Assembly: GCF_014773485.1 (NCBI RefSeq)
Contig: NZ_JACXBP010000002.1
Coordinates: 186,001 to 250,000 of the forward strand
Origin: Erwinia aphidicola
GTDB lineage: Bacteria > Pseudomonadota > Gammaproteobacteria > Enterobacterales > Enterobacteriaceae
Reading direction: 5' to 3'
DNA: 64,000 nucleotides
In this document: positions 10,880 through 63,581 of the stretch, piece by piece
Layout: each line of letters starts with the position of its first letter
Numbering within the stretch: position 1 is the stretch's first letter
Translations under genes and position numbers: made by a program
The notes under the pieces: model-generated
What the model was told of the DNA's origin: nothing
Seen by the model: only the letters and a program-made list of their open reading frames with translations
Database searches by the model: none

Positions 10880-10891
10880 AACATCCTCCAG

Positions 10892-11347: not shown

Positions 11348-12175
<828 letters not shown>

Positions 12176-12193
12176 TCATTCCTGACCAATAGT

Positions 12194-12571: not shown

Positions 12572-12593
12572 ATAGCAGGTAAAATAGCCGCCC

Positions 12594-13547: not shown

Positions 13548-13998
13548 TGCTGGTCTCCAGTACCGGATCAATCTCCAGCACTTCTACGTCAAAGTGAATG
13601 GTCTGCCCGGCCAGCGGGTGGTTGAAATCCACGGTAATGGAATCCCCGGAGATCTCGCGGATCACCCCCGGCATTTCGTTACCGTCCATGCCGCTGAACA
13701 GCATGATGGCGCCGATTTCCGGCTCCCCGGCCTCGACAAAATCGCGGCGCGAGAAGTACTGCACCAGATCCGGGCTGATACCGCCAAACGCGTCGGCCGC
13801 TTCCAGCGCGAACGCCGCTTTCCCGCCAACCGGCAGGCCCAGCAGATGGCTTTCCAGCCCCTCTGACAGGCTGCCATCGCCGAGGCAAAACAGCGCAGGC
13901 TTACCGTTGCTGCGCGTTGACTCCGCCGTGGAACCATCCGCCAGCTTTAAGGTGAAATGCACCAGCACTGCGCTGTCATGCTGTACAGAATCAGTCAT
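13528..13998 (-). CDS. fkpB: FKBP-type peptidyl-prolyl isomerase, SlpA-like
   Basis: 156 residues, slightly longer than E. coli FkpB (149): the family sequence ends at [11 protein letters not shown] and about eight more residues (TSNADPVG) follow. The extension runs into the start of ispH. The FKBP fold with an inserted-in-flap chaperone domain is visible ([35 protein letters not shown]). A ribosome-linked folding helper in the cytoplasm. Starts 3 bp after lspA ends. Confidence 0.93.
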
Positions 13999-14001
13999 GC
14001 C

Positions 14002-14511
14002 TTACCCTTTATTCTTAGCCTGCTTGCTGGCCGGGGTGATAAACCCTTCCAGCACGATCAGCGCGGCACCAATACAGATACCGCAGTCGGCAATATTAAA
14101 CGTGGCGAAGTGCCAGTCACCGACGTAGAAGTCGATAAAATCCACCACAAAGCCATGATATGCCCTGTCGAACAGGTTGCCCAATGCGCCACCGACAATC
14201 AGCGCATAGGCGATGTTATTCAGTTTATTGCTCGCCGCCGTGCGGTACATCATCACCAGCAGCACCACCACAATGGCAATGGCAATTCCGGCGAAGAACC
14301 AGCGCTGCCAGCCACCTTTATCGGCGAGGAAGCTGAACGCCGCGCCGTAGTTGTGAGCATAAAAGAAGTTGAAGAACGGCATCACGGACATCGATTCGTG
14401 CAGCATCAGATTATTCATAATCCACTGCTTACTGGCGAAATCGATGCCAATCACCACCAATACCAGCCACAGCCAGCGTAATCCGCTTGAGAGAACAGGT
14501 CTTTTCATCAT
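14002..14511 (-). CDS. lspA: Lipoprotein signal peptidase (signal peptidase II)
   Basis: 169 residues, four membrane helices. Inner-membrane aspartyl protease that removes signal peptides from prolipoproteins. The catalytic aspartates lie in [19 protein letters not shown] (one in LFDR, one in VVDF). The start codon overlaps the ileS stop by 4 bp, as in E. coli, so the two are translated together. Confidence 0.96.
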
Positions 14512-43054: not shown

Positions 43055-43180
43055 GACTTTCCCCACGTTACCGCCTTAATTATCCTGAACCGCGAAATGT
43101 ATCCCCTTCATGCTAACCAGGTGCGGCCCAACGTGCCATGAACTGAACAAATATTTACGGAATGACACCCCCACTCCTCT

Positions 43181-48700: not shown

Positions 48701-49375
48701 TCGAAATACAACCCGGCGCGCACCTTTACCGCCGAAGGTACCGTCGGCATCGGCGGCATGTACATGTGCATCTACGGCATGGACTCACCGGGCGGCTACC
48801 AGCTGGTCGGGCGCACGCTGCCAATCTGGAACAAGTTCCTCAAGAACGAACAGTTCGCCGCCAGCGAGCCGTGGCTGCTGCGCTTCTTCGACCAGGTCCG
48901 TTTCTACCCGGTGAGCGAAGCCGAGCTGGACGTGCTGCGCGACGATTTCCGCGAGGGGCGCGCCACCATTCGCATCGAGCCGTCGCTGTTTGATTTCGCC
49001 GAACATACGCAGTTTCTTAACGAAAATGCGCACTCTATCGCTGAATTCCGCCGCAGGCAGGCCAGCGCCTTTGAGACCGAAGTGGCGCTGTGGGCGCAGG
49101 AGGAGGAAGGCGCGCCGCTGACCAGCGAAGAGACGCTGTGCCCGGCGCCAGAGGATGACGGCGCGCTGCAGGTCAGCGCCGACATGAACGGCAATATCTG
49201 GAAAGTGCTGGTGCAGCCGGGCGACGAAGTGGCAGCCGGGCAGCCATTGATCATCGTGGAAGCGATGAAAATGGAGCTGGCGATCAACGCCCCGCAGGCC
49301 GGGCGCGTGAAGCGCATCGGCTGCCAGCCAGGCCGCCCGGTCAGCCCCGGCGATGCCCTGCTATGGCTGGAATAG
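45758..49375 (+). CDS. uca: Urea carboxylase (biotin-dependent)
   Basis: 1205 residues. Carboxylates urea to allophanate with ATP and bicarbonate. Domain order: biotin carboxylase (1-450, ATP loop STAGGGGIGLT near 152-162, VNTRLQVEHPVTE), carboxyltransferase parts related to KipA/KipI (about 460-1090: WSSIQDYPGRLGYW, GEAGLHPSNVHD, then PSRIVHLPMAFED), and a biotinyl domain with K1171 in VEAMKMEL. Some relatives are really guanidine carboxylases. Here no carboxyguanidine deiminase genes and no guanidine riboswitch are seen, while a urea importer follows, so urea is the more likely substrate. The start overlaps atzF by 8 bp. Confidence 0.93.
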   Translation: MFSTVLIANRGEIACRAIRTLKRLGVTSVAVYSDADKNAQHVKDADIAIALGGDKASDSYLAIDKILTAAKQSGAQAIWPGYGFLSESLAFAAACEAAGIEFVGPTAQQIGEFGLKHRARELAAAAGVPMTPGTPLLASLDDAIAAATRIGYPVMLKSTAGGGGIGLTRCADEAALISAWESVRRLGEQFFSDAGVFLERCIDQARHVEVQIFGDGKGKVVALGERDCSLQRRNQKVVEETPAPNLPAATRAALLASAVKLGELVNYRSAGTVEYIYDAARDEFFFLEVNTRLQVEHPVTECVTGLDLVECMLQVAAGEQPDWAKMARMPQGASIEVRIYAEDPLKNFQPSPGVLTEVCFPEGVRVDSWISTGTEVSPFYDPMIAKLIVHADSRAAALEKMQAALSETRLHGIATNLDYLRQIVATEAFRTGNVWTRLLDGFTPKAPVIEVIQPGTWSSIQDYPGRLGYWDIGVPPSGPMDDYAFRLANRIVGNAKEAAGLEFTLQGPTLRFHSDALIALTGAACPAALDGEEVAYWQPLKVKAGQTLTLGRAQQGCRTYLAVRNGFDVPEYLGSRSTFALGQFGGHAGRTLRVADMLAISQPELAACTTPAPQTEPAALAPAQQPVYGDEWRIGVLYGPHGAPDFFTQQSIDEFFAAEWQVHYNSNRLGVRLVGPKPGWARANGGEAGLHPSNVHDCEYAIGAVNFTGDFPVILTRDGPSLGGFVCPVTIAKAELWKVGQVKPGDRIRFHPIGFDEAHALEQAQDRSVDSLSALHCAPFAVPSLAQTAQGSGTVLAAIKATTSTPTAIYRQAGDNYILLEYGDNVLDLALRLRVHLLMTALRESGQPGVEELSPGVRSLQIRYDSQILSQKQLMTLLLQLEKNLGDVTQMKVPSRIVHLPMAFEDSATLGAVERYAETVRTSAPWLPNNVDFIQRINGLSSREEVSSTLFDASYLILGLGDVYLGAPCAVPIDPRHRLLSSKYNPARTFTAEGTVGIGGMYMCIYGMDSPGGYQLVGRTLPIWNKFLKNEQFAASEPWLLRFFDQVRFYPVSEAELDVLRDDFREGRATIRIEPSLFDFAEHTQFLNENAHSIAEFRRRQASAFETEVALWAQEEEGAPLTSEETLCPAPEDDGALQVSADMNGNIWKVLVQPGDEVAAGQPLIIVEAMKMELAINAPQAGRVKRIGCQPGRPVSPGDALLWLE

Positions 49376-49377
49376 TC

Positions 49378-50079
49378 ATGGAGGCCAAACGCAGTAAAGA
49401 TCGGCCGGAAGCGCTGGCCGATCGCGTTTACCAGCGGCTGAAAAACGACATCTTCGACTTTCGCCTGATGCCGGGCGACCGCTTCAGCGAAAGCGAAGTG
49501 GCGGAGCGCATGGAGGTCAGCCGCACGCCGGTGCGCCAGGCGCTGTTCCGCCTGGAGCGCGAAGGCTATGTCGAGGTGTGGTTCCGCAGCGGCTGGCAGG
49601 TGCGGCAGTTCGACTTCGCCTACTTCGAAGAGCTGTATGACCTGCGCATTGTGCTGGAGTGCGAAGCGGTGAAACGCCTGTGCTGCCTGCCTGCCGCTGA
49701 CTGCGCCCAGCTGCTAACCCGGCTGACCTGCTTCTGGATCGACGAAGCGCGTCTGGCAGACGGCAATGCCGTGTCGCTGCACGATGAGGCGTTCCATCTG
49801 GCGCTGGTCGCCAGCGCAGGCAACAGCGAAATGGCGCGCATTCACGCCGAACTGACGGAGAAGATCCGCATTATTCGCCGCCTCGACTTCACCCGCGCGG
49901 ATCGCATTAGCGCCACCTATAACGAACACGCGCGCATTTTACGCGCGATATTGCATCAGCACAGCGAGGAGGCTCAGCGCATCCTGACCGATCACATTGC
50001 CGGCAGTCGGGCCGAGGTCAGAAAAATTACCCTCCATATGTTACAGCAGGCAAGGCTACACAATGTTTCATCCACATAA
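49378..50079 (+). CDS. GntR-family (FCD) regulator of the urea operon
   Basis: 233 residues from ATG at 49378, 2 bp after the uca stop; an in-frame ATG at 49363 inside uca is possible but has no ribosome-binding site. Winged helix at about 10-75 (SESEVAERMEVSRTPVRQAL) and an all-helical FCD ligand domain (DLRIVLECEAV, HDEAFHLALVASAGNS, YNEHARILRAI). Placed between the catabolic and transport genes, it probably binds the GTATAC palindrome upstream of atzF. Effector unknown; urea or allophanate would fit. Confidence 0.88.
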   Translation: MEAKRSKDRPEALADRVYQRLKNDIFDFRLMPGDRFSESEVAERMEVSRTPVRQALFRLEREGYVEVWFRSGWQVRQFDFAYFEELYDLRIVLECEAVKRLCCLPAADCAQLLTRLTCFWIDEARLADGNAVSLHDEAFHLALVASAGNSEMARIHAELTEKIRIIRRLDFTRADRISATYNEHARILRAILHQHSEEAQRILTDHIAGSRAEVRKITLHMLQQARLHNVSST

Positions 50080-50106: not shown

Positions 50107-51375
50107 ATGAAGAGACGTTCGTTTATCAAGGCATTCGCGCTGTCTGCCAGCGTTGTGGCAATGGGTCTGTCGTGGAGCGTGCAGGCGGCTGACACCATCA
50201 AAGTGGGGATTATGCATTCCCTGTCCGGCACCATGGCGATTTCCGAATCGCCGCTGAAGGATGTGGCGCTGATGACCATTGATGAGATCAACGCCAAAGG
50301 CGGCGTGCTGGGGAAAAAACTGGAGCCGGTGGTGGTTGACCCGGCTTCTAACTGGCCGCTGTTTGCCGAAAAGGCGCGCCAGCTGCTGACTCAGGATAAA
50401 GCCGCCGTGGTGTTCGGCTGCTGGACCTCGGTGTCGCGCAAGTCCGTGCTGCCGGTGTTTGAGGAGCTGAACGGCCTGCTGTTCTACCCGGTGCAGTATG
50501 AAGGCGAAGAGATGTCGCCCAACGTGTTCTACACCGGCGCCGCGCCAAACCAGCAGGCGATCCCGGCGGTGGAATATCTGATGAGCGAAGATGGCGGTTC
50601 CGCTAAGCGCTTCTTCCTGCTCGGCACTGACTACGTCTACCCGCGCACCACCAACAAAATCCTGCGCGCCTTCCTGCACTCAAAAGGCGTGAAGGATAGC
50701 GACATCGAAGAGGTCTACACGCCGTTTGGATACAGCGACTACCAGACAATCGTCGCCAACATCAAGAAATTCTCGGCGGGTGGTAAAACGGCGGTGGTCT
50801 CCACCATCAACGGTGACTCCAACGTACCGTTCTATAAAGAGCTGGCTAACCAGGGCATCAAAGCCACCGATGTGCCCGTGGTCGCCTTCTCGGTAGGCGA
50901 AGAGGAGCTGCGCGGCATCGACACTAAACCGCTGGTCGGCAACCTCGCCGCGTGGAACTACTTCGAGTCGGTGGATAACCCAACCAACAAGCAGTTCGTC
51001 GCTGCCTACCGCGCTTACGCCAAGGCGCACAAGCTGCCGAACGCCGATACCGTGGTGACCAACGATCCCATGGAAGCCACCTATGTCGGCATCCATATGT
51101 GGGCGCAGGCGGTTGAGAAAGCGGGCACTACCGACGTGGATAAGGTTCGTGCGGCGATGGCCGGGCAGACCTTTGCCGCGCCGGACGGCTTCACCCTGAC
51201 CATGGATCAGACCAACCACCACCTGCATAAGCCGGTGATGATTGGCGAGATCGAAGATAACGGCCAGTTCAACGTGGTCTGGCAGACCGACAAACCGGTG
51301 CGCGCCCAGCCGTGGAGCCCGTATATCGCCGGCAACGATAAAAAGCCGGATAGCCCGGTAAAAACCAGCAATTAA
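50107..51375 (+). CDS. urtA: Urea ABC transporter, substrate-binding protein
   Basis: 422 residues. Periplasmic receptor of the Urt branched-chain-amino-acid-type importer. The N-terminus MKRRSFIKAFALSASVVAMG has a twin-arginine motif, so export may be by Tat; cleavage is likely after WSVQA. The mature part has the family features IKVGIMHSLSGTMAISE, PVQYEGEE and TNDPMEATYVGIHMWAQAVEKAGT. 27 bp after the regulator gene. Confidence 0.93.
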   Translation: MKRRSFIKAFALSASVVAMGLSWSVQAADTIKVGIMHSLSGTMAISESPLKDVALMTIDEINAKGGVLGKKLEPVVVDPASNWPLFAEKARQLLTQDKAAVVFGCWTSVSRKSVLPVFEELNGLLFYPVQYEGEEMSPNVFYTGAAPNQQAIPAVEYLMSEDGGSAKRFFLLGTDYVYPRTTNKILRAFLHSKGVKDSDIEEVYTPFGYSDYQTIVANIKKFSAGGKTAVVSTINGDSNVPFYKELANQGIKATDVPVVAFSVGEEELRGIDTKPLVGNLAAWNYFESVDNPTNKQFVAAYRAYAKAHKLPNADTVVTNDPMEATYVGIHMWAQAVEKAGTTDVDKVRAAMAGQTFAAPDGFTLTMDQTNHHLHKPVMIGEIEDNGQFNVVWQTDKPVRAQPWSPYIAGNDKKPDSPVKTSN

Positions 51376-51389
51376 TCCGCCGTAAAAGC

Positions 51390-51446
51390 GTAGGGGCGGA
51401 GCATGCCCGGCCCTAAAAGCGTAGTGGCGGGGCATGCCCCGCCCAC
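51390..51446 (+). repeat. Pair of GCATGC-centred REP-like palindromes
   Basis: GTAGGGGCGGAGCATGCC (from 51390) and GTAGTGGCGGGGCATGCC (from 51421) each start a palindrome centred on GCATGC, about 24-26 bp long and in direct orientation. They fill the urtA-urtB gap and may protect urtA mRNA, whose product is needed in excess over the permeases. A perfect member of the same subfamily occurs at 59838. Confidence 0.7.
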
Positions 51447-51460
51447 TCCCGGAGCGAAAT

Positions 51461-53023
51461 ATGATGATGCGATTCCTGCTGTTACTGCTGCTCAGCCTGC
51501 CCTGGCTTGTTCAGGCCGGACCGGCCGCCGATTTTGCCGCCGCCAGCCGCAGCGATCAGCTGAAACTTCTGCAGCAGTGGGCCGCCGCACCGGATGCCGC
51601 ACGCCTGCCGCTGTTGCAGGCTCTGCGCCAGGAGCGTGTCGTGCTGGACGACAATAAACACCCCTTCAGCCAGATTAATGGCCAGCTGACGCCGCTGGAA
51701 GGCAGCAATGCGCCCGCCGGCAGCACCAAAAAGCTGTTTATGAACAACAGGCTGCGGGTGATGATCGCCACCACCCTCGCCGCCCACCAGCTGGTCAGCC
51801 CGGATAGCGCCCAGCGCCTGAGCGCGGCGCGCACGCTGCAAAATGATGCGCAGGCCGACCAGCTGCCGCTGCTGAAACAGCGGCTGGCCGCCGAACCGGA
51901 CAGCCGCGTGCAGGCGGTGCTGGCGCAGGCCGTTGCCGGGCTGCAGCTGGCCGACGCTAACCCGCAGGTGCGCCTCGAAGCGGTGAAGCTGCTGGGCGAA
52001 ACCAGCGATCCGCAGACGCAAGCCAGCCTCGAACGCCTGCTGCAACCCAGCGTTGAAGCCGATGCCAGCGTGCGTGCCGCCGCCGCCGACAGCCTGAAAC
52101 AGATCCGCCATCGCCTGCTGCTCGGCGACCTGCTCGGCCAGGCCTTCACCGGCCTGTCGCTCGGATCGGTGCTGCTGCTGGCGGCGCTTGGCCTGGCGAT
52201 CACCTACGGCCTGCTCGGGGTGATCAATATGGCGCACGGCGAGATGCTGATGATCGGCGCCTACGCCACCTGGATGGTACAGAGCCTGTTCCAGCGTTTC
52301 GCCCCGGAGTGGCTGGTGTTTTATCCGCTGCTGGCGCTGCCGGTGGCGTTCTTTATCACCGCCGCGGTCGGCATGGCGCTGGAGCGCACCATCATTCGCC
52401 ACCTGTATGGCCGCCCGCTGGAAACCCTGCTGGCGACCTGGGGCATCAGCCTGATGCTGATCCAGCTGGTGCGCGTGCTGTTTGGCTCGCAGAATCTTGA
52501 GGTCGCTAACCCGCCCTGGCTCTCCGGGGGCTTACAGGTGCTGCCAAACCTGGTGCTGCCGTACAACCGCCTGGCGGTGATCCTGTTTGTTATCGGCGTG
52601 CTGGTGCTCACCTGGCTGCTGCTGAATAAAACCCGCCTCGGGATGAACGTGCGTGCGGTGACGCAGAACCGCGCGATGGCCGACTGCTGCGGCGTACCGA
52701 CCGGACGCGTGGATATGCTGGCATTCGGCCTCGGGTCCGGTATTGCCGGGCTGGGCGGCGTGGCGCTGTCGCAGCTTGGCAACGTCGGTCCGGAGCTGGG
52801 ACAGGGCTATATCATCGACTCCTTCCTGGTGGTGGTCACCGGCGGCGTCGGCCAGCTGGCGGGCACCGTGGTCGCCGCGCTGGGCCTGGGTATTCTCAAC
52901 AAGGTGCTGGAGCCGCAGATTGGTGCGGTACTCGGCAAAATCCTGATCCTCGTGCTCATCGTGCTGTTTATTCAGAAGCGACCGCAGGGGCTGTTCGCCT
53001 TAAAAGGCAGGGTGATTGACTGA
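51461..53023 (+). CDS. urtB: Urea ABC transporter, permease UrtB
   Basis: 520 residues from ATG at 51461 (GGAG site 7 nt upstream). A signal peptide (MMMRFLLLLLLSLPWLVQA) and a periplasmic N-terminal region of about 210 residues with alanine-rich helical repeats precede the LivH-type membrane domain of eight or so helices (GLAITYGLLGVINMAHGEMLM). The N-terminal extension is typical of proteobacterial UrtB and is not a fusion accident. TGA overlaps the urtC start by one base. Confidence 0.93.
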   Translation: MMMRFLLLLLLSLPWLVQAGPAADFAAASRSDQLKLLQQWAAAPDAARLPLLQALRQERVVLDDNKHPFSQINGQLTPLEGSNAPAGSTKKLFMNNRLRVMIATTLAAHQLVSPDSAQRLSAARTLQNDAQADQLPLLKQRLAAEPDSRVQAVLAQAVAGLQLADANPQVRLEAVKLLGETSDPQTQASLERLLQPSVEADASVRAAAADSLKQIRHRLLLGDLLGQAFTGLSLGSVLLLAALGLAITYGLLGVINMAHGEMLMIGAYATWMVQSLFQRFAPEWLVFYPLLALPVAFFITAAVGMALERTIIRHLYGRPLETLLATWGISLMLIQLVRVLFGSQNLEVANPPWLSGGLQVLPNLVLPYNRLAVILFVIGVLVLTWLLLNKTRLGMNVRAVTQNRAMADCCGVPTGRVDMLAFGLGSGIAGLGGVALSQLGNVGPELGQGYIIDSFLVVVTGGVGQLAGTVVAALGLGILNKVLEPQIGAVLGKILILVLIVLFIQKRPQGLFALKGRVID

Positions 53024-54099
53024 TGACGCAACCGATAACGCTTACCGTGGCGCAGAAAGCGCCGCGCCTGACGCTCTGCCTTGGCGCGCTACTGCTGCTC
53101 GCCCTGCTGCTGATGCCGTTTCTGGCCCTGCTACCGGCGGACAACCCGCTGGCGATCTCCACCTATACACTGACGCTGGTCGGCAAGATCCTTTGCTATG
53201 CCATTGTCGCGGTGGCGCTCGACCTGGTGTGGGGCTACGCCGGGCTGCTGTCGCTTGGCCACGGGCTGTTCTTTGCCCTCGGCGGCTATGCGATGGGCAT
53301 GTATCTGATGCGCCAGGCAGCGGGGGATGGCCTGCCGGCGTTTATGTCCTTCCTGTCGTGGAACGAGCTGCCGTGGTTCTGGGCGGGAACGCAGCATTTT
53401 GCCTGGGCGCTGTGCCTGATTGTGCTGGTGCCGGGGATGCTGGCGCTGGTGTTCGGCTGGTTCGCCTTTCGCTCGAAAATCAAAGGCGTCTACTTCTCGA
53501 TTATGACCCAGGCGCTGACCTACGCCGGGATGCTGCTGTTCTTCCGCAACGAAACCGGCTTTGGCGGCAATAACGGCTTCACCGGCTTCACCACGCTGCT
53601 TGGCTTCCCTGTCACCGCCACCCGCACCCGCGTCGGGCTGTTTGTCGCCAGCGTGCTGCTGCTGGCAGCCAGCCTCGCCGTCGGTTTCGCCCTGGCACGC
53701 AGCAAGTTTGGCCGCGTGCTGACGGCAGTGCGCGATGCCGAAAATCGCCTGATGTTTTGCGGCTACGATCCGAAAGGCTTCAAGCTGTTTGTCTGGACGC
53801 TCTCCGCCGTGTTGTGCGGGCTGGCGGGCGCGCTGTACGTGCCGCAGGTGGGGATTATCAACCCCGGCGAAATGTCGCCAACCAACTCAATTGAGGCTGC
53901 CATTTGGGTGGCGCTCGGCGGGCGCGGCACGCTGATCGGTCCGCTGCTCGGAGCCGGGATCGTCAACGGCGCGAAAAGCTGGTTCACCGTCGCCTTCCCG
54001 GAATACTGGCTGTTCTTCTTAGGCCTGATGTTTATCCTCGTCACGCTGTTCCTGCCGCGTGGCGTGATTGGCCTGCTGCGCCGGAGGAAGCATGACTGA
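53023..54099 (+). CDS. urtC: Urea ABC transporter, permease UrtC
   Basis: 358 residues, LivM-type permease with about nine helices; signature DLVWGYAGLLSLGHGLFFALGGYAMG split over residues 67-92 and AIWVALGGRGTLIGPLLGA near 293-311. Forms the channel with UrtB. Start overlaps urtB by one base and end overlaps urtD by 8 bp. Confidence 0.94.
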   Translation: MTQPITLTVAQKAPRLTLCLGALLLLALLLMPFLALLPADNPLAISTYTLTLVGKILCYAIVAVALDLVWGYAGLLSLGHGLFFALGGYAMGMYLMRQAAGDGLPAFMSFLSWNELPWFWAGTQHFAWALCLIVLVPGMLALVFGWFAFRSKIKGVYFSIMTQALTYAGMLLFFRNETGFGGNNGFTGFTTLLGFPVTATRTRVGLFVASVLLLAASLAVGFALARSKFGRVLTAVRDAENRLMFCGYDPKGFKLFVWTLSAVLCGLAGALYVPQVGIINPGEMSPTNSIEAAIWVALGGRGTLIGPLLGAGIVNGAKSWFTVAFPEYWLFFLGLMFILVTLFLPRGVIGLLRRRKHD

Positions 54100-54883
54100 A
54101 CCCCTGTTTACCCAGCCACACCCGGCAGACCGCCATCGCCTGCAGACCGACCCGGTGCTCCAGCTGGAAAAAATCAACGTCTCGTTTGACGGTTTTAAAG
54201 CGCTGACCGACCTGTCACTTCAGATTGGCGTCGGTGAACTGCGCTGCGTCATCGGCCCGAACGGCGCGGGAAAAACCACCCTGATGGATGTGATAACCGG
54301 CAAAACCCGCCCGGACAATGGCCGGGTGTTCTACGACCAGAGCACTGACCTGACCACGCTTTCCCCTGTCGAAATCGCACGCATCGGCATCGGGCGCAAG
54401 TTCCAGAAACCAACGGTGTTTGCCGCGCTGACGGTGTTTGAAAATCTGGAGATCGCGCTGAAAACCGATAAGTCGGTATGGGCCTGCCTGCGGGCAAAGC
54501 TTAACGGCGAGCAGCAGGACCGCATTGATGAGGTGCTGAAGCTGCTGCGCCTCGGGGCGGAACGTCAGCGCCCCGCCGGGCTGCTGTCGCACGGGCAGAA
54601 GCAGTTTCTGGAAATCGGCATGCTGCTGGTGCAGGACCCGCACCTGCTGCTGCTGGATGAACCGGCGGCAGGCATGACGGATGCCGAAACCGAATACACC
54701 GCCGAGCTGTTCCGCTCGCTGGCCGGCAAGCATTCGCTGATGGTGGTTGAGCACGATATGGGCTTTGTCGAAACCATCGCCGACCACGTGACGGTGCTGC
54801 ATCAGGGCCAGGTGCTGGCGGAAGGATCGCTGCGCGAGGTGCAGGCCAACGAGCAGGTTATCGAAGTTTATCTGGGGCGCTGA
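54092..54883 (+). CDS. urtD: Urea ABC transporter, ATP-binding protein UrtD
   Basis: 263 residues from ATG at 54092, chosen for its perfect GGAGGA site. LivG-type ATPase: Walker A GPNGAGKTT, Walker B LLLLDEPAAGMTD, H-loop VVEHDMGFV. The signature is LSHGQKQFLE, the form usual in UrtD. About 30 extra residues precede the core. Overlaps urtC by 8 bp and ends 1 bp before urtE. Confidence 0.94.
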   Translation: MTEPLFTQPHPADRHRLQTDPVLQLEKINVSFDGFKALTDLSLQIGVGELRCVIGPNGAGKTTLMDVITGKTRPDNGRVFYDQSTDLTTLSPVEIARIGIGRKFQKPTVFAALTVFENLEIALKTDKSVWACLRAKLNGEQQDRIDEVLKLLRLGAERQRPAGLLSHGQKQFLEIGMLLVQDPHLLLLDEPAAGMTDAETEYTAELFRSLAGKHSLMVVEHDMGFVETIADHVTVLHQGQVLAEGSLREVQANEQVIEVYLGR

Positions 54884-54884
54884 T

Positions 54885-55583
54885 ATGTTACAGGTTACTG
54901 AACTAAATCAATATTATGGCGGCAGCCACATTCTGCGCGGCCTGTCGTTTGAGGTTAAAGCGGGTGAGATCACCTGCCTGCTGGGGCGCAACGGCGTAGG
55001 GAAAACCACGCTGCTTAAATGCCTGATGGGGCTGATCCCGGCGAAGTCCGGCACCATCAGCTGGCAGGATAAGCCGATCAACGGGCGCAAGCCGCACCAG
55101 CGCGTGCAGGCGGGCATCGCCTACGTGCCGCAGGGGCGCGAGATCTTCCCGCGCCTGACGGTAGAGGAGAATCTGCTCATGGGGCTGGCACGTTTTTCCG
55201 GCAGCCAGGCGCGTCAGGTGCCGGAGGAGATCTGGCAGCTGTTTCCGGTACTGTGGCAGATGAAGCAGCGGCGCGGCGGCGATCTTTCCGGTGGCCAGCA
55301 GCAGCAGTTAGCCATTGGCCGCGCGCTGGCCTGCAGGCCGCAGCTGCTGATCCTCGACGAACCGACGGAAGGGATCCAGCCGTCGGTGATCAAGGAGATC
55401 GGCGCGGTGATCCGTCAGCTGGCCGCACGCGGCGATATGGCGATCCTGCTGGTTGAACAGTTTTACGACTTTGCCGCCGAGCTGGCCGACAGCTATCTGG
55501 TGATGTCGCGCGGTGAGATTGTCCAGCGCGGCCTCGGCAAGGAGATGGAAAGCGACGGGGTGCGCGGGTTAGTAGCGATTTGA
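54885..55583 (+). CDS. urtE: Urea ABC transporter, ATP-binding protein UrtE
   Basis: 232 residues. LivF-type ATPase with Walker A GRNGVGKTT, IAYVPQGREIFPRLTVEENL, signature LSGGQQQQLAIGRAL and Walker B LLILDEPTEGIQPS, the last being characteristic of UrtE. Last gene of the urea operon. Confidence 0.95.
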   Translation: MLQVTELNQYYGGSHILRGLSFEVKAGEITCLLGRNGVGKTTLLKCLMGLIPAKSGTISWQDKPINGRKPHQRVQAGIAYVPQGREIFPRLTVEENLLMGLARFSGSQARQVPEEIWQLFPVLWQMKQRRGGDLSGGQQQQLAIGRALACRPQLLILDEPTEGIQPSVIKEIGAVIRQLAARGDMAILLVEQFYDFAAELADSYLVMSRGEIVQRGLGKEMESDGVRGLVAI

Positions 55584-55595
55584 TTTTGATACGGC

Positions 55596-55626
55596 GGGCC
55601 GACGGAAAAAGAGGGTCGGCCCCTAC
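55596..55626 (-). repeat. REP-like palindrome after urtE
   Basis: GGGCCGAC (55596-55603) pairs with GTCGGCCC (55615-55622); on the minus strand a GTAGGGG head starts at 55626. It starts 12 bp past the urtE stop and probably marks the 3' end of the urea operon transcript. Confidence 0.7.
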
Positions 55627-55629
55627 GGA

Positions 55630-55859
55630 TTTCTCGGTCGGCCTTTAAAAAAATCATGTTAATAATCCCAATTAAATAAATTACCATCTCATTAATAGAT
55701 TTATATCTCCGCCCGCAATATTATAATTCCCTGCCGTTACTGAATATTCTTCATAAAGAAATAAATTTAATTTCATTTCATATTTTGGAAATATTCATAT
55801 ACTACTTTCCTGTATTGTCATGAAATCAAATTTACCGATCCTTTAATGGAGGTACTCGC
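55630..55859 (+). promoter_or_regulatory. AT-rich leader of the NRPS gene
   Basis: About 230 bp of extremely AT-rich sequence; the stretch 55741-55800 has only 9 G/C in 60 bases. It contains TTGTCATGAAATC and several TATATT/TATAAT-like boxes, but I cannot choose one promoter. The composition suggests silencing by H-NS and a foreign origin. GGAGG at 55849-55853 region serves the GTG start. Confidence 0.55.
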
Positions 55860-58800
55860 GTGGCTATTTATCCGCTAACCAGCGTGCAGCAAGCCGTCTG
55901 GCTCGATCAGTTATTAACACCATCCACCCCCTGCTACAACGTTGGCGCGCTGTGGCGCATTGAAAGAGAGGTTGATATCACCCTGTTAAATCAGGCAATA
56001 AATGAAACTCTCGCCCAACATGATGCGCTGAAATTAACCTTAAAAGAGAGTGAAGGCGGTATCATTCAGACGACCGTATCGAATCAAGACTTCACTCTCG
56101 AATACCACGACTTTAGTCAGGATAACGACGCCGAAAAAAAAGCCCGCGAATACCTAAAGGATAAATTTAATCAACCTTTTAAACTGTATGAAGAATTACT
56201 CTGGCGCTGCGTATTTATTAAAACCACGGCGACAACTGCCTTATGGTTGATTAATGCCCATCATATTATCGCCGACGGGACTTCAGTCTCTCTGCTGAGC
56301 GGCATGATTATGGATCGCTACAAACAGCTGAAAAACGGTCAGTTAGCAGCCCACCAGCAGATTTTCGGCTATCGTGACTTTATCGCTAACGACTGCGCCT
56401 ATTTGCAGTCCACACGCTATGAACGCGACCGCGCCTTCTGGCTGACGCGCTTTGCTGAGCATGCCCAGCCGGGAATGGAGCGGCGTGCCGGCTTTGACCC
56501 AGGCCAGGCGTGGCCCAGCCAGCAGATTAACCGCCCTCTTCCGCTGGAGCGCTATCAGCGCCTGTGCGCCCTGGCCGCCGCACACGGCTGTTCGCCGATG
56601 CACCTGATGACCGCGCTGCTGGCCTGCTGGTACAGCCGCCTGTGGCAGGTTGAACAGCTGACGCTCGGCGTGCCGGTCCATAACCGCAGCGGCGCTCAGC
56701 ACAAGCGTACGCTTGGCATGTTCTCTTCGATGATCCCGGTGGCACTCAGCGTTGACCTCAGCCAGCCATTCAGCGCCCTGATGAGCCAGATTGCCGCCGA
56801 ACTTCGCTGCTGCTACCGCCACCAGCGCTTCCCGATTGCCGAGCTTAACCGCCAGCTGCGCCTCGGGCAGCAGGGCCGCCGCCAGCTGTATGACCTGAGC
56901 TTTTCGCTGGAAGTCTTCCCGACCGATATTGAACTGGAAGGCAGCCAGCTGAAAGTGGAAACCCTGCATCACGGTTTTGAACAGATGCCGCTGGCGCTTT
57001 ATCTGCGCCACTATCACCCCGGCGATGCGCCGCTGCTGGAGTTTAACTTCAATGAAGCCTGGTTCAGCGCCGCCGATGCGCAGCGCAGCGCCGACCGCCT
57101 GCTGATGCTGCTGGATCATCTGCTCGACCACGGCGCAGAGCAGCCGCTGGCGCAGATCCCACTGCTATTGCCGCAGGAACAGCAGCAGATCTTCGGCCAG
57201 TGGAATAACACTGAACAGCAGTGGCCGCTGCCGGAAGGCATTCACTGCGGGTTTGAGCAGCAGACGGCACGCACGCCCGGCGCCGTTGCGCTGTGCGGTC
57301 ACGGCGGCAACGTCAGCTATCAGCAGCTCAATCAGCGCGCTAACCGGCTGGCGGCAGAACTGCGCCAGGCGGGGATTGGCCCTGACGATCGCGTGGCGCT
57401 GTGCTGCGCCCGCAGCAGTGAGATGGTGACGGCGCTGCTGGCGATCCTCAAATCCGGCGGCGCTTACGTACCGCTCGATCCCGACTATCCGCCGGATCGC
57501 CTCAGCCATATGCTCAGCGACTGCGGGGCCGCGCTGGTGCTGCTCGACGATGCCGGCGAGCAGGCGCTGAGCCCGCTGCTGGGCGCCGATCTGCCGGTCT
57601 GGCATCTGAGCCGCGATGCCGCCCGCTGGCAAACTCAGCGCGAGGCTAATCTGCCCGCGCTGGCCGCCGATCCCCAGCGCTCGCTGGCCTATGTTATCTA
57701 CACCTCCGGCTCAACGGGCAAACCGAAAGGGGTCATGAACGAACACCTCGGGGTGATGAACCGCCTGCGCTGGATGCAGGAGGAGTACCGGCTGACGCCG
57801 CAGGACTGCGTACTGCAAAAAACCCCGTTCAGCTTTGATGTCTCGGTGTGGGAGTTCTTCTGGCCGCTGATGGTCGGCGCACGGTTGGCCATCGCCAGGC
57901 CGGCGGGTCACCAGGACCCGGACTACCTCAGCCAGCTTATCGCCGCACAGCAGGTCACGACCCTGCACTTCGTCCCTTCAATGCTGCAGCTGTTTCTTCG
58001 CCACGGCGACATGGAACGGTGCCGCCCGCTGCGCAAGGTGATGTGCAGCGGCGAAGCGCTGCCGCTGGCGGCAGTGCAGCGCTTCCACCAGCAGCTGCCG
58101 GATGCCGAACTGCATAATCTGTACGGCCCGACCGAAGCGGCGGTGGATGTCTCCTTCTGGCACTGCCGGCGCGACGATGCGCGCGGGCTGGTGCCGATTG
58201 GCAGACCGGTCGCCAACACCCAGCTCTATATCCTTGATGCACAGCTGCAACCGCTGCCGCCGGGCGTCAGCGGCGAGCTGCATATCGGCGGCGTGCAGGT
58301 GGCGCGCGGCTACCTTAACCGCGAACAGCTGAGCGCCGAGCGCTTTATTGCCGACCCGTTCAGCAGCGACCCCGCTGCCCGCCTGTATAAAACCGGCGAT
58401 CTGGCGCGCTGGCTGGAGGATGGCAGCATTGAGTACCTCGGGCGCAATGATTTCCAGGTGAAAATCCACGGCCTGCGCATTGAGCTGGGCGAGATTGAGC
58501 AGCAGATTGCCGGATTTAGCGGCATCGACGATGTGGTGGTGATGGCCTGCGACGACGGCCGGGGTGACAAACGGCTGATCGCCTGGCTGGTTGCCGCCCC
58601 GCAGCCCGGCCTGCGCGAGAAGCTGCGCCGCACCCTGCAGGACGCGCTGCCGGAATATATGATCCCCAGCGCCTTTGTGCGGCTGGATGCGTTTCCGCTC
58701 TCCCCTAACGGTAAGCTGGACCGCAAAGCATTGCCGCAGCCTGCGTGGCAGGCGGAAGAAACGGCGTGGCGCGCCCCGCAGAGCGCGGGTGAACGCCAGC

Positions 58801-59798
58801 TGGCAGCGTGGTGGCGCGAGCTGCTACAGGTGGAGAACATCGGCTGCGACGACGATTTCTTCGCGCTTGGCGGCCACTCGCTGCACGCCATCCAGCTGAT
58901 GGTGAAGCTCAAGCGCGCGGGCATCGCGCTGGAGATGAAAACCCTGTTTGCCAACAGCACGCTAAGCGCCCAGGCGCGCGCCATCGCCGGATGCGCGGAG
59001 CTGAACGCGCAGGCTCACGCGCCGCTGCCGATGCAGAAACTGCTGCAGCAGCTCAACCAGCCCGCGGCGCAGTTCCGGCTCACCCAGCGCCTGAACTCGC
59101 CCGCTGAAGCAGGTAATCTGTGGATGGTGCATCCGGCGGTGGTTGGCTGTGAGATCTACCGCGATCTGGCGCAGGCGTTTGACGGCCAGCTCAATGCCAT
59201 CGGCATCAATAATTACAATCTGTACCACCAGCCGCCTATCCCGTCGCTGTCGGCGCTCGCCAGCTATTACCTGCAGCATATGGTGAGCCAGGGGCTGTCG
59301 CGCCAGCAGCCAGTGCAGCTGCTGGGCTGGTCGCTCGGTGGCGTGATTGCGCTGGAGATAGCCGCTCAGCTCGAGCAGCGCGGCTATCGCGATATCCATC
59401 TCTGCCTGCTCGACAGCCTGTACCAGACCGACATTCAGCAGCGCATTGTGGCGGGCATGCTGGCGCCACTGCTGGCGATGATCGGCATCGAGGGGGAAGC
59501 GGCCGAACGCGCGCTGCGCATTGAGCAGCTTGAACTGTCGATGAACAACCAGCCGCTGAGCGCCCCGCTGCGCCACAGCCGGGTGACGCTGTTTAAAGCC
59601 ACCGAGTTTGCCGACCTGAGCATGGACGGTATCGACGGCGTGGAACTGCTGGCGCTGAGCGATAATGGCCTGGGTAAAGTCTGCCCGCAGCTGCAGGTGA
59701 TCCCGCTGGCGGCCAATCACCATTCGATTATCCTGTGCCACGAACCGATCGTCGCCGCGCTGAACCTGGCGCAGAAGATCGGCAGCAGCGCGGCGTAA
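55860..59798 (+). CDS. Single-module nonribosomal peptide synthetase (C-A-T-TE), predicted to use serine; SwrW/EntF-like
   Basis: 1312 residues from GTG at 55860 with GGAGG 7 nt upstream. Condensation domain 1-440 with HHIIADG (134-140); adenylation domain about 455-960 with YTSGSTGKPKG (614-624) and YKTGDLARW; carrier domain about 975-1045 with phosphopantetheine serine S1007 in LGGHS; thioesterase about 1085-1312 with S1158 in GWSLGG, D1185 and H1287/H1288. Specificity residues D660, V661, W664, H703, M728, S730, L754, V762, D763, K952 give D-V-W-H-M-S-L-V-D-K, one change from the EntF serine code. No enterobactin genes are near. Length and architecture equal SwrW of Serratia (1310 residues), which makes serratamolide, a cyclic dimer of 3-hydroxyacyl-serine; a similar lipopeptide is the best guess. 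The first about 160 codons are AT-rich, unlike the rest. Confidence 0.9.
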   Translation: MAIYPLTSVQQAVWLDQLLTPSTPCYNVGALWRIEREVDITLLNQAINETLAQHDALKLTLKESEGGIIQTTVSNQDFTLEYHDFSQDNDAEKKAREYLKDKFNQPFKLYEELLWRCVFIKTTATTALWLINAHHIIADGTSVSLLSGMIMDRYKQLKNGQLAAHQQIFGYRDFIANDCAYLQSTRYERDRAFWLTRFAEHAQPGMERRAGFDPGQAWPSQQINRPLPLERYQRLCALAAAHGCSPMHLMTALLACWYSRLWQVEQLTLGVPVHNRSGAQHKRTLGMFSSMIPVALSVDLSQPFSALMSQIAAELRCCYRHQRFPIAELNRQLRLGQQGRRQLYDLSFSLEVFPTDIELEGSQLKVETLHHGFEQMPLALYLRHYHPGDAPLLEFNFNEAWFSAADAQRSADRLLMLLDHLLDHGAEQPLAQIPLLLPQEQQQIFGQWNNTEQQWPLPEGIHCGFEQQTARTPGAVALCGHGGNVSYQQLNQRANRLAAELRQAGIGPDDRVALCCARSSEMVTALLAILKSGGAYVPLDPDYPPDRLSHMLSDCGAALVLLDDAGEQALSPLLGADLPVWHLSRDAARWQTQREANLPALAADPQRSLAYVIYTSGSTGKPKGVMNEHLGVMNRLRWMQEEYRLTPQDCVLQKTPFSFDVSVWEFFWPLMVGARLAIARPAGHQDPDYLSQLIAAQQVTTLHFVPSMLQLFLRHGDMERCRPLRKVMCSGEALPLAAVQRFHQQLPDAELHNLYGPTEAAVDVSFWHCRRDDARGLVPIGRPVANTQLYILDAQLQPLPPGVSGELHIGGVQVARGYLNREQLSAERFIADPFSSDPAARLYKTGDLARWLEDGSIEYLGRNDFQVKIHGLRIELGEIEQQIAGFSGIDDVVVMACDDGRGDKRLIAWLVAAPQPGLREKLRRTLQDALPEYMIPSAFVRLDAFPLSPNGKLDRKALPQPAWQAEETAWRAPQSAGERQLAAWWRELLQVENIGCDDDFFALGGHSLHAIQLMVKLKRAGIALEMKTLFANSTLSAQARAIAGCAELNAQAHAPLPMQKLLQQLNQPAAQFRLTQRLNSPAEAGNLWMVHPAVVGCEIYRDLAQAFDGQLNAIGINNYNLYHQPPIPSLSALASYYLQHMVSQGLSRQQPVQLLGWSLGGVIALEIAAQLEQRGYRDIHLCLLDSLYQTDIQQRIVAGMLAPLLAMIGIEGEAAERALRIEQLELSMNNQPLSAPLRHSRVTLFKATEFADLSMDGIDGVELLALSDNGLGKVCPQLQVIPLAANHHSIILCHEPIVAALNLAQKIGSSAA

Positions 59799-59945: not shown

Positions 59946-60686
59946 ATGGAAACCCGGCGCGACGAGCGCATCAATAAGCTGGCCCAGGCGCTGAAAGGCA
60001 CCGATAAAATCCATCTGAAAGAGGCGGCTCAACTGCTTGGGGTGTCTGAGATGACCATTCGCCGCGACCTGAATGAAGGCCCGGGCGCGGTGGTATTGCT
60101 GGGCGGCTACATCGTCAGCGACCCGATGCGTCACCAGAACCACTATTTTGTTTCCGATCAGCAGGGGCAGCATGTCGAGCAAAAGCGCCTGCTGGGCCAG
60201 CACGCCAGCTCGCTGATCAATGCCAATGAAACGGTCTATTTTGACTGCGGTACCACCATTCCGTGGGTGATTGACGCCATCGATCCCGACCTGCCGTTTA
60301 CCGCCGTCTGCTGTGCGATGAACACTTTCCTCGCGCTGAAAGAGAAAAATGCCCGGGTGATCCTGTGCGGCGGCGAGTTCCACGCGGATAACGCCATCTT
60401 CACCCCGCTGGGTCAGCTGTCAGTGATGGACAGCCTGTGTCCGGATAAGGCGTTCATCTCCGCCGCCGGAATCGATGTGCAGCAGGGTGCCAGCTGCTAC
60501 AACCTGAACGAGCTGCCGATGAAGCTTCTGGCACTGCAGCGCGCGCGCCAGAAGTTACTGGTGGCCGACAGCAGCAAATATGGCAAGGTGCTGCCGGCGC
60601 GCATCGCCGATCTCAGCGCGTTTAACGGCTTAATCAGCGATGCCGCCCCCGGGTACGACATCGGTATTGAGGTTATCACCCCGTAA
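59946..60686 (+). CDS. deoR: Deoxyribose operon repressor DeoR
   Basis: 246 residues, clearly the E. coli DeoR orthologue: METRRDERINKLAQALK, DKIHLKEAAQLLGVSEMTIRRDLN (helix-turn-helix), VVLLGGYI, FDCGTTIPWVIDAID, FTAVCCAMNTFLALKEK and ILCGGEFHADNAIF. Represses nucleoside catabolism genes and responds to deoxyribose-5-phosphate. The deo operon is not in this window. Its last residues diverge from E. coli and it is a few residues shorter. Confidence 0.92.
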   Translation: METRRDERINKLAQALKGTDKIHLKEAAQLLGVSEMTIRRDLNEGPGAVVLLGGYIVSDPMRHQNHYFVSDQQGQHVEQKRLLGQHASSLINANETVYFDCGTTIPWVIDAIDPDLPFTAVCCAMNTFLALKEKNARVILCGGEFHADNAIFTPLGQLSVMDSLCPDKAFISAAGIDVQQGASCYNLNELPMKLLALQRARQKLLVADSSKYGKVLPARIADLSAFNGLISDAAPGYDIGIEVITP

Positions 60687-60763: not shown

Positions 60764-61708
60764 TTACCAGCGATTTAAAATCTCTTCGCCATCGCGCAGG
60801 CGGCGTAAATTCTCACACACCGCCGCGACATTGCCAGCCAGCGAGATATCGGTCACGCCGCCAATGTGCGGGGTGGCAATCACGTTATAGCTGAACAACG
60901 CATCCTGCGGCTCGGGCGGCTCCTGCCAGAACACGTCCAGCCCGGCGCCGCTCAGCTGACCGTTCGCGAGCGCCGCCAGCAGCGCAGACTTCTCAATCAG
61001 CCCGCCGCGCCCGAGATTAATCAGAAAAGCCCCCGGCTTCATCTGCGCCAGCGCCGCTTCATCAATAATATGATGGGTCGCCGGGTTATCCGGCAGGCTG
61101 AGCACCACAAAGTCAGCTTCCCGCAGCAGCTGCGGCAGGCAGTCCATCTCTCCGACCCACGCCAGACGATGCTGGCGGGCAAAGTCATCATCGGCGCTGC
61201 GCTTAACGCCGATCGTACGCATCTCAAACGCCGCCAGCCTCTGCGCCAGCGCTTTGCCAATGCCCCCCAGCCCGACCAGCCCGACGGTTTTGCCCTTCAG
61301 TCCCATGCCAACCGGCAGGCCAAGCTGGCGCGTGGCGATCATCTGTGGCACCTGGTTAGCCTTACGCGCCAGCCCGATCATCATCCAGATGCCCAGCTCC
61401 GCCACCGAGTCGGCGTTGCCGGAGCGGTCGGACGGTACGTTCGCCACCATCACGCCCTGCGCATGGGCGCTGGCGATATCCACCCCTTCCAGCCCGGCCC
61501 CGGCCTGCTGAATCAGCTTGAGGCGATCGGCGGTGCGCAACAGAGCGGGAGTGACCTTCGCCATGCCGGGGATCAACGCGTCAAAACCGGCCAGGCTTTC
61601 CGCCGCGTGGCCCGGCGATGCGACAAATTCGACGTCGGGCAAACGCTGGCGAAACTGCTGGATCATCCCACCCCAGGCATTCTCTTCCGCGGCTATCAGA
61701 ACTCTCAT
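60764..61708 (-). CDS. D-isomer-specific 2-hydroxyacid dehydrogenase
   Basis: 314 residues from ATG at 61708, preferred because GGAG lies 8 nt upstream; an ATG at 61720 has no such site. NAD(P)-binding loop VGLVGLGGIGKA near 140-151. Catalytic Arg, Glu and His are in INLGRGGLIEKSAL, QEPPEPQD and TPHIGGVT. It reduces a 2-oxoacid or oxidises a D-2-hydroxyacid (glyoxylate, hydroxypyruvate and phosphoglycerate relatives). The substrate is not deducible. It is convergent with deoR and stands alone. Confidence 0.88.
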   Translation of the reverse strand: MRVLIAAEENAWGGMIQQFRQRLPDVEFVASPGHAAESLAGFDALIPGMAKVTPALLRTADRLKLIQQAGAGLEGVDIASAHAQGVMVANVPSDRSGNADSVAELGIWMMIGLARKANQVPQMIATRQLGLPVGMGLKGKTVGLVGLGGIGKALAQRLAAFEMRTIGVKRSADDDFARQHRLAWVGEMDCLPQLLREADFVVLSLPDNPATHHIIDEAALAQMKPGAFLINLGRGGLIEKSALLAALANGQLSGAGLDVFWQEPPEPQDALFSYNVIATPHIGGVTDISLAGNVAAVCENLRRLRDGEEILNRW

Positions 61709-61913
61709 TGATATCTCCATGGTTTTAAAGGCAAAAAAACCAGCTTAGCCGTAACTGAACAGAAATCAATCAGAAACAGGCGCTTGTAGCGATATCAGGA
61801 TAATCAGGCCGTCCCGGCTGTGAATAGCAGGGGAAAACAGCTAAACTCCGCTATCTGAGTGGGCAGCTGTTTTGCCCCAATTAAACCCCAGACCATAAGA
61901 GGCTCAACCCAAC

Positions 61914-63581
61914 GTGGCTCAATTCGTCTATAGCATGCATCGCGTCGGCAAAGTCGTACCGCCGAAGCGTCATATTTTAAAGAACATCTCCCTCAGTTTC
62001 TTCCCAGGTGCCAAGATCGGCGTACTGGGTCTGAACGGTGCGGGTAAATCCACCCTGCTGCGCATCATGGCCGGCATCGATAAAGATATCGAAGGGGAAG
62101 CACGCCCGCAGCCAGGCCTGAAGATCGGCTACCTGGAGCAGGAACCGAAGCTGAACCTGGAACACACCGTGCGCGAATCGGTGGAAGAAGCCGTGGCCGA
62201 AGTGGTGGGCGCGCTGAAAGGGCTGGACGAGGTGTACGCCAAGTACGCCGAGCCGGATGCTGACTTCGACAAGCTCGCCGCTCAGCAGGGCAAGTTTGAA
62301 GAGATCATCCAGGCGCACGACGGCCACAACCTGAATACCCAGCTGGAGCGTGCGGCCGATGCGCTGCGCCTGCCGGACTGGGATGCAAAAATTGCTAACC
62401 TGTCCGGTGGTGAGCGCCGCCGCGTCGCTCTGTGCCGCCTGCTGCTGGAAAAGCCGGACATGCTGCTGCTGGACGAACCGACCAACCACCTGGATGCCGA
62501 ATCCGTGGCCTGGCTGGAACGCTTCCTGCACGACTTCGAAGGGACCGTGGTGGCGATTACCCACGACCGTTACTTCCTGGATAACGTAGCGGGTTGGATC
62601 CTCGAGCTGGACCGCGGCGAAGGTATTCCGTGGGAAGGTAACTACTCTTCCTGGCTGGAGCAGAAAGATGCGCGTCTGGCGCAGGAAGCCTCATCCGAAG
62701 CCGCTCGTCGTAAATCGATTGAGAAAGAGCTGGAGTGGGTGCGCAAAGGTGCCAAAGGTCAGCAGTCCAAAGGCAAGGCCCGTCTGGCGCGCTTTGAAGA
62801 GCTGAACAACACCGAGTACCAGAAGCGTAACGAAACCAACGAACTGTTCATTCCACCTGGAGCACGCCTGGGTGACAAGGTGCTGGAAGTCAGCAACCTG
62901 CGTAAATCCTATGGCGACCGCCTGCTGATTGACGACCTCTCCTTCTCGGTTCCTAAGGGTGCGATTGTCGGCATCATCGGTCCGAACGGCGCGGGTAAAT
63001 CCACGCTGTTCCGCATGATGTCCGGTCAGGAGCAGCCTGACTCCGGCGAGATCGTGCTGGGTGAAACCGTTAAGCTGGCGTCGGTCGATCAGTTCCGCGA
63101 CAGCATGGATAATTCTAAAACCGTTTGGGAAGAAGTCTCCGGCGGCCAGGATATTATGCGTATCGGCAACACCGAGATGCCAAGCCGTGCCTACGTTGGC
63201 CGCTTTAACTTTAAAGGGGTTGATCAGGGTAAACGCGTTGGCGAACTCTCCGGTGGTGAGCGCGGTCGTCTGCACCTGGCGAAGCTGCTGCAGGTTGGCG
63301 GCAACATGCTGCTGCTGGATGAACCGACCAACGACCTCGACATCGAAACCCTGCGCGCGCTGGAAAACGCCCTGCTGGAGTTCCCGGGCTGTGCCATGGT
63401 GATCTCGCACGACCGCTGGTTCCTCGACCGTATTGCCACCCACATTCTGGACTATCAGGATGAAGGCAAGATCGAGTTCTTCGAAGGTAACTTCACCGAA
63501 TACGAAGAGTACAAGAAACGCACGCTGGGCGCCGAAGCGCTGGAGCCGAAGCGTATCAAGTACAAGCGTATGATTAAGTAA
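61914..63581 (+). CDS. ettA: Energy-dependent translational throttle protein EttA (ABC-F)
   Basis: 555 residues, same length as E. coli EttA, and like it starts with GTG (61914). Two ABC cassettes: Walker A GLNGAGKST and GPNGAGKST, signatures LSGGERRRVAL and LSGGERGRLHL, with DEPTNHLDAES and DEPTNDLDIET. The interdomain linker KELEWVRKGAKGQQSKGK binds the ribosome P/E-site tRNA region in the family. It gates entry into the elongation cycle according to ATP/ADP. The 205-bp gap to the divergent dehydrogenase contains no other gene. Confidence 0.97.
   Translation: MAQFVYSMHRVGKVVPPKRHILKNISLSFFPGAKIGVLGLNGAGKSTLLRIMAGIDKDIEGEARPQPGLKIGYLEQEPKLNLEHTVRESVEEAVAEVVGALKGLDEVYAKYAEPDADFDKLAAQQGKFEEIIQAHDGHNLNTQLERAADALRLPDWDAKIANLSGGERRRVALCRLLLEKPDMLLLDEPTNHLDAESVAWLERFLHDFEGTVVAITHDRYFLDNVAGWILELDRGEGIPWEGNYSSWLEQKDARLAQEASSEAARRKSIEKELEWVRKGAKGQQSKGKARLARFEELNNTEYQKRNETNELFIPPGARLGDKVLEVSNLRKSYGDRLLIDDLSFSVPKGAIVGIIGPNGAGKSTLFRMMSGQEQPDSGEIVLGETVKLASVDQFRDSMDNSKTVWEEVSGGQDIMRIGNTEMPSRAYVGRFNFKGVDQGKRVGELSGGERGRLHLAKLLQVGGNMLLLDEPTNDLDIETLRALENALLEFPGCAMVISHDRWFLDRIATHILDYQDEGKIEFFEGNFTEYEEYKKRTLGAEALEPKRIKYKRMIK

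What the first reader, a model, noticed from the sequence alone, without database searches (positions are those of the whole stretch)
55860..59798. Unimodular serine-activating NRPS, likely a serratamolide-like biosurfactant synthetase
One gene holds C-A-T-TE with all catalytic residues intact. The ten specificity residues read D-V-W-H-M-S-L-V-D-K, differing from the EntF serine code at one place. Only EntF and SwrW-type enzymes are known to me with this size and order. EntF needs entABCDE, and none of these genes is present; SwrW (Serratia) works alone with 3-hydroxyacyl donors. The N-terminal condensation domain would then be a starter type that N-acylates serine, and the thioesterase would dimerise and cyclise two units. 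A lipopeptide surfactant in a plant-associated Erwinia relative would matter for surface spreading.
Basis: partly seen in the sequence, partly recalled or inferred. Interest (0 to 1): 0.75.

Follow-up and report, generated by a model that had tools for sequence, protein, structure and literature searches.

The report
Serratamolide-type biosurfactant synthetase in Erwinia
This gene is the Erwinia counterpart of swrW, the one-gene Serratia enzyme that makes the soap-like antibiotic serratamolide, and it is the likely genetic basis of a compound already detected in an Erwinia isolate.

Summary
In detail: one intact 1312-aa C-A-T-TE synthetase with serine code DVWHMSLVDK. The SwrW reading is well supported. 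In the genus of Serratia marcescens, 7 of 30 genomes hold a full-length homologue at 62-64% identity; all 7 have a CTP-synthase-like gene on one side and lrgBA on the other, the published swrW neighbours, and 5 of 7 have the identical code. But 9 of 15 same-genus genomes with this gene, including a same-species genome at 99%, have no EntE hit at 1e-100, so an EntF role is unlikely. The gene is a presence/absence cassette near ettA, not at the Serratia site. An EntD-like phosphopantetheinyl transferase is in all 15. PMC8867984 reports serratamolide A and six derivatives from an Erwinia isolate, naming no swrW. New member of a known kind; no product was measured here.

The parts
55860..59798 (+). 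SwrW-type synthetase gene, 1312 aa, C-A-T-TE
55866..57191 (+). Condensation domain (residues 3-444), HHIIADG motif
   Evidence: clade with Serratia SwrW 100/100
57252..58715 (+). Adenylation domain (residues 465-952), code DVWHMSLVDK (serine)
58797..58985 (+). Thiolation (carrier) domain, attachment Ser1007 in LGGHSL
59118..59798 (+). Thioesterase domain, Ser1158-Asp1185-His1287 (Pfam match ends at residue 1222; the His lies beyond it, in the aligned C-terminal part)
   Evidence: the three residues are kept in 12 of 12 same-genus and 7 of 7 Serratia-genus rows
55848..55852 (+). GGAGG ribosome-binding motif upstream of the GTG start
55584..55859 (+). AT-rich intergenic stretch after urtE (presumed promoter region, not shown); the 300 bases before the start codon, which include the end of urtE, are 36% GC

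Best explanation
The gene is the Erwinia orthologue of Serratia swrW and encodes a stand-alone synthetase for a serratamolide (serrawettin W1)-type cyclic aminolipid. Proposed working: an EntD/Sfp-type transferase loads phosphopantetheine on the T domain; the A domain activates L-serine and loads it on T; the C domain N-acylates serine with a 3-hydroxyacyl group from primary lipid metabolism; the TE domain takes two 3-hydroxyacyl-serine units and releases them as a cyclic dilactone, an extracellular wetting agent with antimicrobial activity. Shown here: gene integrity, domain order, serine code, orthology, C-domain lineage, presence of a transferase, occurrence without EntE. Inferred: acyl donor, dimerisation, product and role.
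For: 7 of 30 genomes of the genus of S. marcescens 106R carry full-length homologues of 62-64% identity. In 7 of 7 of these a CTP-synthase-like gene stands on one side and LrgB, LrgA and LysR on the other (families named on L132), matching the swrW context in PMC7767323 (abstract and passages). Code identical in 5 of 7, V at the fifth position in the other 2. Modules 2 and 3 of SwrA in S. marcescens 106R read DVWHMSLVDK too, and serrawettin W2 has serine second (PMC8880026, passages). C-domain clade 100/100 with SwrW. 9 of 15 genomes with the gene have no EntE hit at 1e-100. EntD-like transferase in 15 of 15. Serratamolide A (m/z 515.3329, C26H46N2O8, assigned by mass and MS/MS) and six derivatives in Erwinia sp. 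FHG110488 (PMC8867984, passages). swrW expressed from a plasmid gives serrawettin W1 in P. putida (PMC6053208, PMC7468441, passages).
Against: No product was measured here. Identity to Serratia SwrW is 62-64%, so acyl-chain range could differ. The gene lies at a different chromosomal site from Serratia swrW, without the lrgAB and CTP-synthase-like neighbours in the three same-genus loci tested for them. The genome of FHG110488 was not examined, so the link between that compound and this gene is inferred. An EntE homologue exists in this genome. PMC8880026 gives swrW as 4476 bp, longer than the 3.9-kb frames found here in both genera; I did not resolve that.
Confidence: 0.92

Rival explanations
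1. It is an EntF-type enterobactin synthetase that takes 2,3-dihydroxybenzoate from the ent-type genes elsewhere in the genome and makes a catechol siderophore.
For: Same domain order and size as EntF; serine code one residue from EntF; an EntE homologue at 72%, with ORFs that look like entC, entB and entA beside it, is in the genome.
Against: NCBIfam EntF equivalog 651 bits against a cut-off of 2400; 33% identity overall, 20.6-22.5% in C, 22.3-27.4% in TE to three EntF proteins; C domain outside the EntF clade; 9 of 15 genomes with the gene have no EntE hit at 1e-100, among them a same-species genome with the gene at 99%. An EntF-like C domain is on the genome's C18 synthetase, which joins EntF at 100/100 beside an enterochelin-esterase homologue.
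Confidence: 0.03
2. A SwrW relative with changed chemistry: same architecture, but it makes a linear N-acylserine, a mixed or longer-chain dilactone, or a trimer rather than serratamolide A.
For: 57.6-58.0% identity of the TE and 59.0-59.9% of the C to two Serratia SwrW proteins; the fifth code position varies (M, F, V, I) within the 12 same-genus rows.
Against: TE triad kept in 12 of 12 same-genus and 7 of 7 Serratia-genus rows; an isolate called Erwinia does make serratamolide A.
Confidence: 0.05

Closest known systems
SwrW, serrawettin W1 (serratamolide) synthetase of Serratia
   Same: Length (1312-1314 aa in 6 of 7 by first start codon, 1337 in L113), C-A-T-TE order, serine code, full-length identity 62-64%, common C-domain clade.
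   Different: Chromosomal site: in 7 of 7 Serratia-genus loci a CTP-synthase-like gene and lrgBA flank it; same-genus copies sit within about 16 kb of ettA, in 12 of 12 loci beside urtDE, slt or deoR.
EntF, enterobactin synthetase component F
   Same: Domain order, size, serine activation.
   Different: 33% identity; separate C-domain clade; occurs without EntE in 9 of 15 genomes.
SwrA, serrawettin W2 synthetase
   Same: Modules 2 and 3 share the ten-residue code; 43% identity over C-A-T.
   Different: Five C domains in a frame of about 5960 aa; its starter C domain (a long branch) lies with the EntF-side N-terminal C domains, not with SwrW.
Serratamolide production by Erwinia sp. FHG110488 (PMC8867984)
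   Same: Same genus name and the predicted product class.
   Different: Chemistry only; the term swrW does not occur in the main text.

Membership tests
SwrW (serrawettin W1 synthetase) | Single protein of about 1310 aa with C-A-T-TE | tested here: met
SwrW (serrawettin W1 synthetase) | Serine-type A-domain code as in Serratia SwrW | tested here: met
   DVWHMSLVDK; identical in 5 of 7 Serratia-genus homologues
SwrW (serrawettin W1 synthetase) | Full-length orthology, C domain in the SwrW clade | tested here: met
   62-64% full length; 100/100
SwrW (serrawettin W1 synthetase) | EntD/Sfp-type phosphopantetheinyl transferase available in the genome | tested here: met
   G000:C18:214626-215339, FSLKES motif, PF17837 and PF01648; 15 of 15 genomes
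SwrW (serrawettin W1 synthetase) | Product is a cyclic dimer of 3-hydroxyacyl-serine, made by this gene alone | not testable with these tools
   needs expression and mass spectrometry
EntF | Passes the EntF equivalog model | tested here: not met
   651.2 bits, cut-off 2400
EntF | C domain in the EntF clade | tested here: not met
   EntF clade 100/95 without it
EntF | Occurs with 2,3-DHB genes (EntE) | tested here: not met
   EntE hit at 1e-100 in 6 of 15 genomes with the gene, G000 among the 6

The most novel reading that the evidence does not exclude
SwrW-type C domains are a lineage of their own among initiating C domains, separate from the SwrA starter C and EntF groups, and the Erwinia enzymes, 62-82% identical to the window's, have diverged to make an Erwinia-specific family of serratamolide congeners carried as a 4-kb presence/absence cassette.
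Probability: 0.25. Interest if true: 0.45.

Novelty: new member of a known kind. Interest (0 to 1): 0.33.

Why it matters
It supplies a likely gene for serratamolides already seen chemically in an Erwinia isolate, shows this surfactant/antibiotic trait in two genera at different chromosomal sites, and gives a diverse set of one-gene synthetases (15 same-genus and 7 Serratia-genus genomes here) for studying how a single module acylates, dimerises and cyclises. For plant-associated Erwinia it points to a testable trait in surface spreading and competition.

Tried and rejected
EntF reading: rejected (see rivals). Plasmid origin: tblastn against 72,556 plasmid records gave 2930 with a match, none at 60% identity or more. 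Regulation by the adjacent DeoR: not supported. In 11 of 22 gene-less same-genus genomes urtE and deoR are 0.11-0.44 kb apart, and in L163 the same deoR stands beside a DeoC-family aldolase, with an MFS transporter and a DUF4432 protein nearby (similar-looking ORFs in L160 and L164, not searched). It looks like a sugar-catabolism regulator; that role is inferred. A boundary motif of the cassette was sought by local alignment of 11 empty-site stretches with the window's flanks: none was clear. Other genera: of an even sample of 392 family genomes, 5 passed E 1e-250: three of g1 (the window's genus), one of g50 (G118, same coordinates as the Serratia-genus genome G085) and one of g142 with 47% over C-A-T only, inside a 7543-aa frame. 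An order sample of 394 gave 3, of g1 and g50. These samples are not exhaustive.

Errors of mine: the first three code columns were shifted by one; corrected for some rows and for all 25. In one search my ORF picker hid LrgB in some Serratia loci; one search covered all seven. In one search, 300 of 344 C domains were used; the 44 dropped were mostly repeat or partial copies, chosen by locus id. One search used 57 rows, the 22 internal ones a random sample.

Full report
What is there. The ORF at 55860-59798 on the + strand encodes 1312 aa with Pfam condensation, AMP-binding, carrier and thioesterase domains in that order. Motif residues of all four domains are intact. The start is backed by a GGAGG motif, present before the start in 12 of 12 same-genus loci printed.

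Who has it. The window is G000:C17:186001-250000 of a 5.1-Mb genome whose stated contamination is 9.67%. A same-species genome (G093, contamination 1) has the gene at 99%, so it is unlikely to be a contaminant. Of 36 same-genus genomes (G000 counted), 14 have a full-length copy (62-82% identity besides G000); with G093, 15 of 37. Three are named through the public scan: Winslowiella arboricola, Erwinia sp. ErVv1 and Erwinia phyllosphaerae (same coordinates under G061-G063 and G031, G035, G018). In the genus of Serratia marcescens 106R, 7 of 30 genomes have a full-length copy at 62-64%. In 7 of 7 of these a lipid A acyltransferase and a CTP synthase C-terminal-region-related protein stand on one side and LrgB, LrgA and a LysR regulator on the other (families named on L132). 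PMC7767323 (abstract and passages) says that CTP synthase is immediately upstream and LrgA/LrgB immediately downstream of swrW. So these seven are taken as SwrW. No published SwrW sequence was itself in hand.

Not EntF. Identity to three EntF proteins is 33% overall, 20.6-22.5% in C and 22.3-27.4% in TE, against 62-63% overall to two Serratia SwrW proteins. The NCBIfam EntF model scores 651 bits with a cut-off of 2400. In a 57-row maximum-likelihood tree of C domains the 9 same-genus and 4 Serratia SwrW rows form one clade (100/100) and 6 EntF rows another (100/95). Both lie on one side of a branch (96/93) with the SwrA starter, 8 of 9 other N-terminal C domains and one internal domain; the clade holding EntF and the SwrA starter (100/99) excludes SwrW. 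Against a simple 'N-terminal side': the N-terminal C domains of a three-module synthetase fall on the other side, and the SwrA starter is a long branch. A first FastTree of 300 domains also put the 19 SwrW rows together (1.0).

The genome does have ent-type genes: an EntE homologue at 72%, with ORFs that by appearance are entC, entB and entA beside it (only EntE was searched). On C18 are an enterochelin-esterase homologue, a TonB receptor whose best models are of the FhuA/FoxA kind (below their cut-offs), and a synthetase in two overlapping frames, whose first C domain joins EntF at 100/100. This keeps the EntF reading alive until tested by distribution. An EntE hit at 1e-100 or better is found in 17 of 37 same-genus genomes (15 at 71-73%, 2 at 43-44%), but in only 6 of the 15 with the SwrW-type gene. 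G093 has the gene and no such EntE hit.

Where it sits. Neighbours by NCBIfam models over their cut-offs: slt (41132-43066, -), allophanate hydrolase (43966-45765), urea carboxylase (45758-49375), urtA-E (50107-55583), then the NRPS, deoR (59946-60686) and ettA (61914-63581). A GntR-family regulator (49363-50079) and a D-2-hydroxyacid dehydrogenase-like gene (60764-61720, -; models below cut-off) lie among them. In 15 of 15 genomes with the gene it lies within about 16 kb of ettA on the same contig (coordinates). Of 22 same-genus genomes without it, urtE and deoR are 0.11-0.44 kb apart in 11, 4 have other genes between them (2.9-8.5 kb), and in 7 no urtE was found in the stretch read. The gene is thus a presence/absence cassette at a variable site. 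In the full-length tree the Serratia rows form one clade (1.0) and the same-genus rows another with weak support (0.753; 65/13 for the C domain). I cannot tell gene transfer from old common descent with loss.

How it probably works. The mechanism in Best explanation follows SwrW. PMC8880026 (passages) says serrawettin W1 is thought to arise by condensation of two 3-hydroxydecanoyl-serine molecules and that swrW is a large ORF with C, A, T and TE; it gives 4476 bp, longer than the frames found here. PMC6053208 and PMC7468441 (passages) report serrawettin W1 from P. putida expressing swrW. PMC4117218 (passages) states that the transferase PswP is required for serrawettin W1 in S. marcescens ATCC 274 and assigns PswP of strain Db10 (96% identical) to the F/KES Sfp type. 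The window genome has a 238-aa transferase with FSLKES, 37% identical to EntD over 146 aa, found in 15 of 15 genomes with the gene (44-61% outside the species) and at 40% in the two Serratia-genus genomes tested.

Chemistry in print. PMC8867984 (passages) reports serratamolide A (m/z 515.3329, C26H46N2O8, by mass and fragmentation) and six derivatives from Erwinia sp. FHG110488, serratamolide A in an active fraction of an extract chosen for activity against M. smegmatis and Z. tritici; swrW does not occur in its main text. PMC3353980 (abstract and passages) gives the Serratia biology: surfactant zones, swarming, antimicrobial and hemolytic activity. Searches for serrawettin with Erwinia (16 papers), serratamolide with Pantoea (5), serratamolide with Erwinia (12) and Erwinia with biosurfactant terms (8) listed no title or abstract opening that reports the gene in Erwinia. 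Of these papers I read passages of PMC8867984, PMC8880026, PMC3353980 and PMC4117218 only; the rest I saw as listings. So a report of the gene in Erwinia elsewhere is not excluded.

Verdict. It is a new member of a known kind, of moderate interest because it links a compound known from an Erwinia isolate to a likely gene and shows a second genus carrying it.

Noticed in passing
L137 (G000:C18:30001-50000), 4885-15134: Siderophore locus: enterochelin-esterase homologue and a synthetase in two overlapping frames (6587-13729, 13485-15134) whose second code reads DVWHFSLVD (serine type, last position not aligned); possibly chrysobactin-like (recalled label). No such synthetase, nor the C4 one, is among the 12 matches in the same-species genome G093, which also lacks the EntE hit.
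   Followed up: partly
window 55560-56460 and the same place in orthologues: The 300 bases before the gene (27-39% GC) and its first 600 bases (44-55%) are AT-richer than the rest of the gene in 14 of 14 loci measured, the two Serratia ones less so inside the gene. Reason unknown; silencing by H-NS-like proteins is one idea.
   Followed up: no
L138 4272-14366 (-) (G000:C21) and L147 (S. marcescens 106R): A three-module synthetase of about 3340-3360 aa, in both genera, whose terminal thioesterase is 50% identical to the SwrW-type thioesterase over 222-236 aa, closer than EntF's (22-27%); its product is not known to me.
   Followed up: partly
window 41132-63581 and L153-L174: The slt-ettA interval is a variable site in this genus: urea-degradation and urea-transport genes, an apparent sugar-catabolism set and the NRPS come and go.
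   Followed up: partly
L034 (S. marcescens 106R), SwrA: SwrA modules 2 and 3 both carry the serine code DVWHMSLVDK, although the composition given for serrawettin W2 is Leu-Ser-Thr-Phe-Ile (PMC8880026); the strain may make a variant.
   Followed up: no
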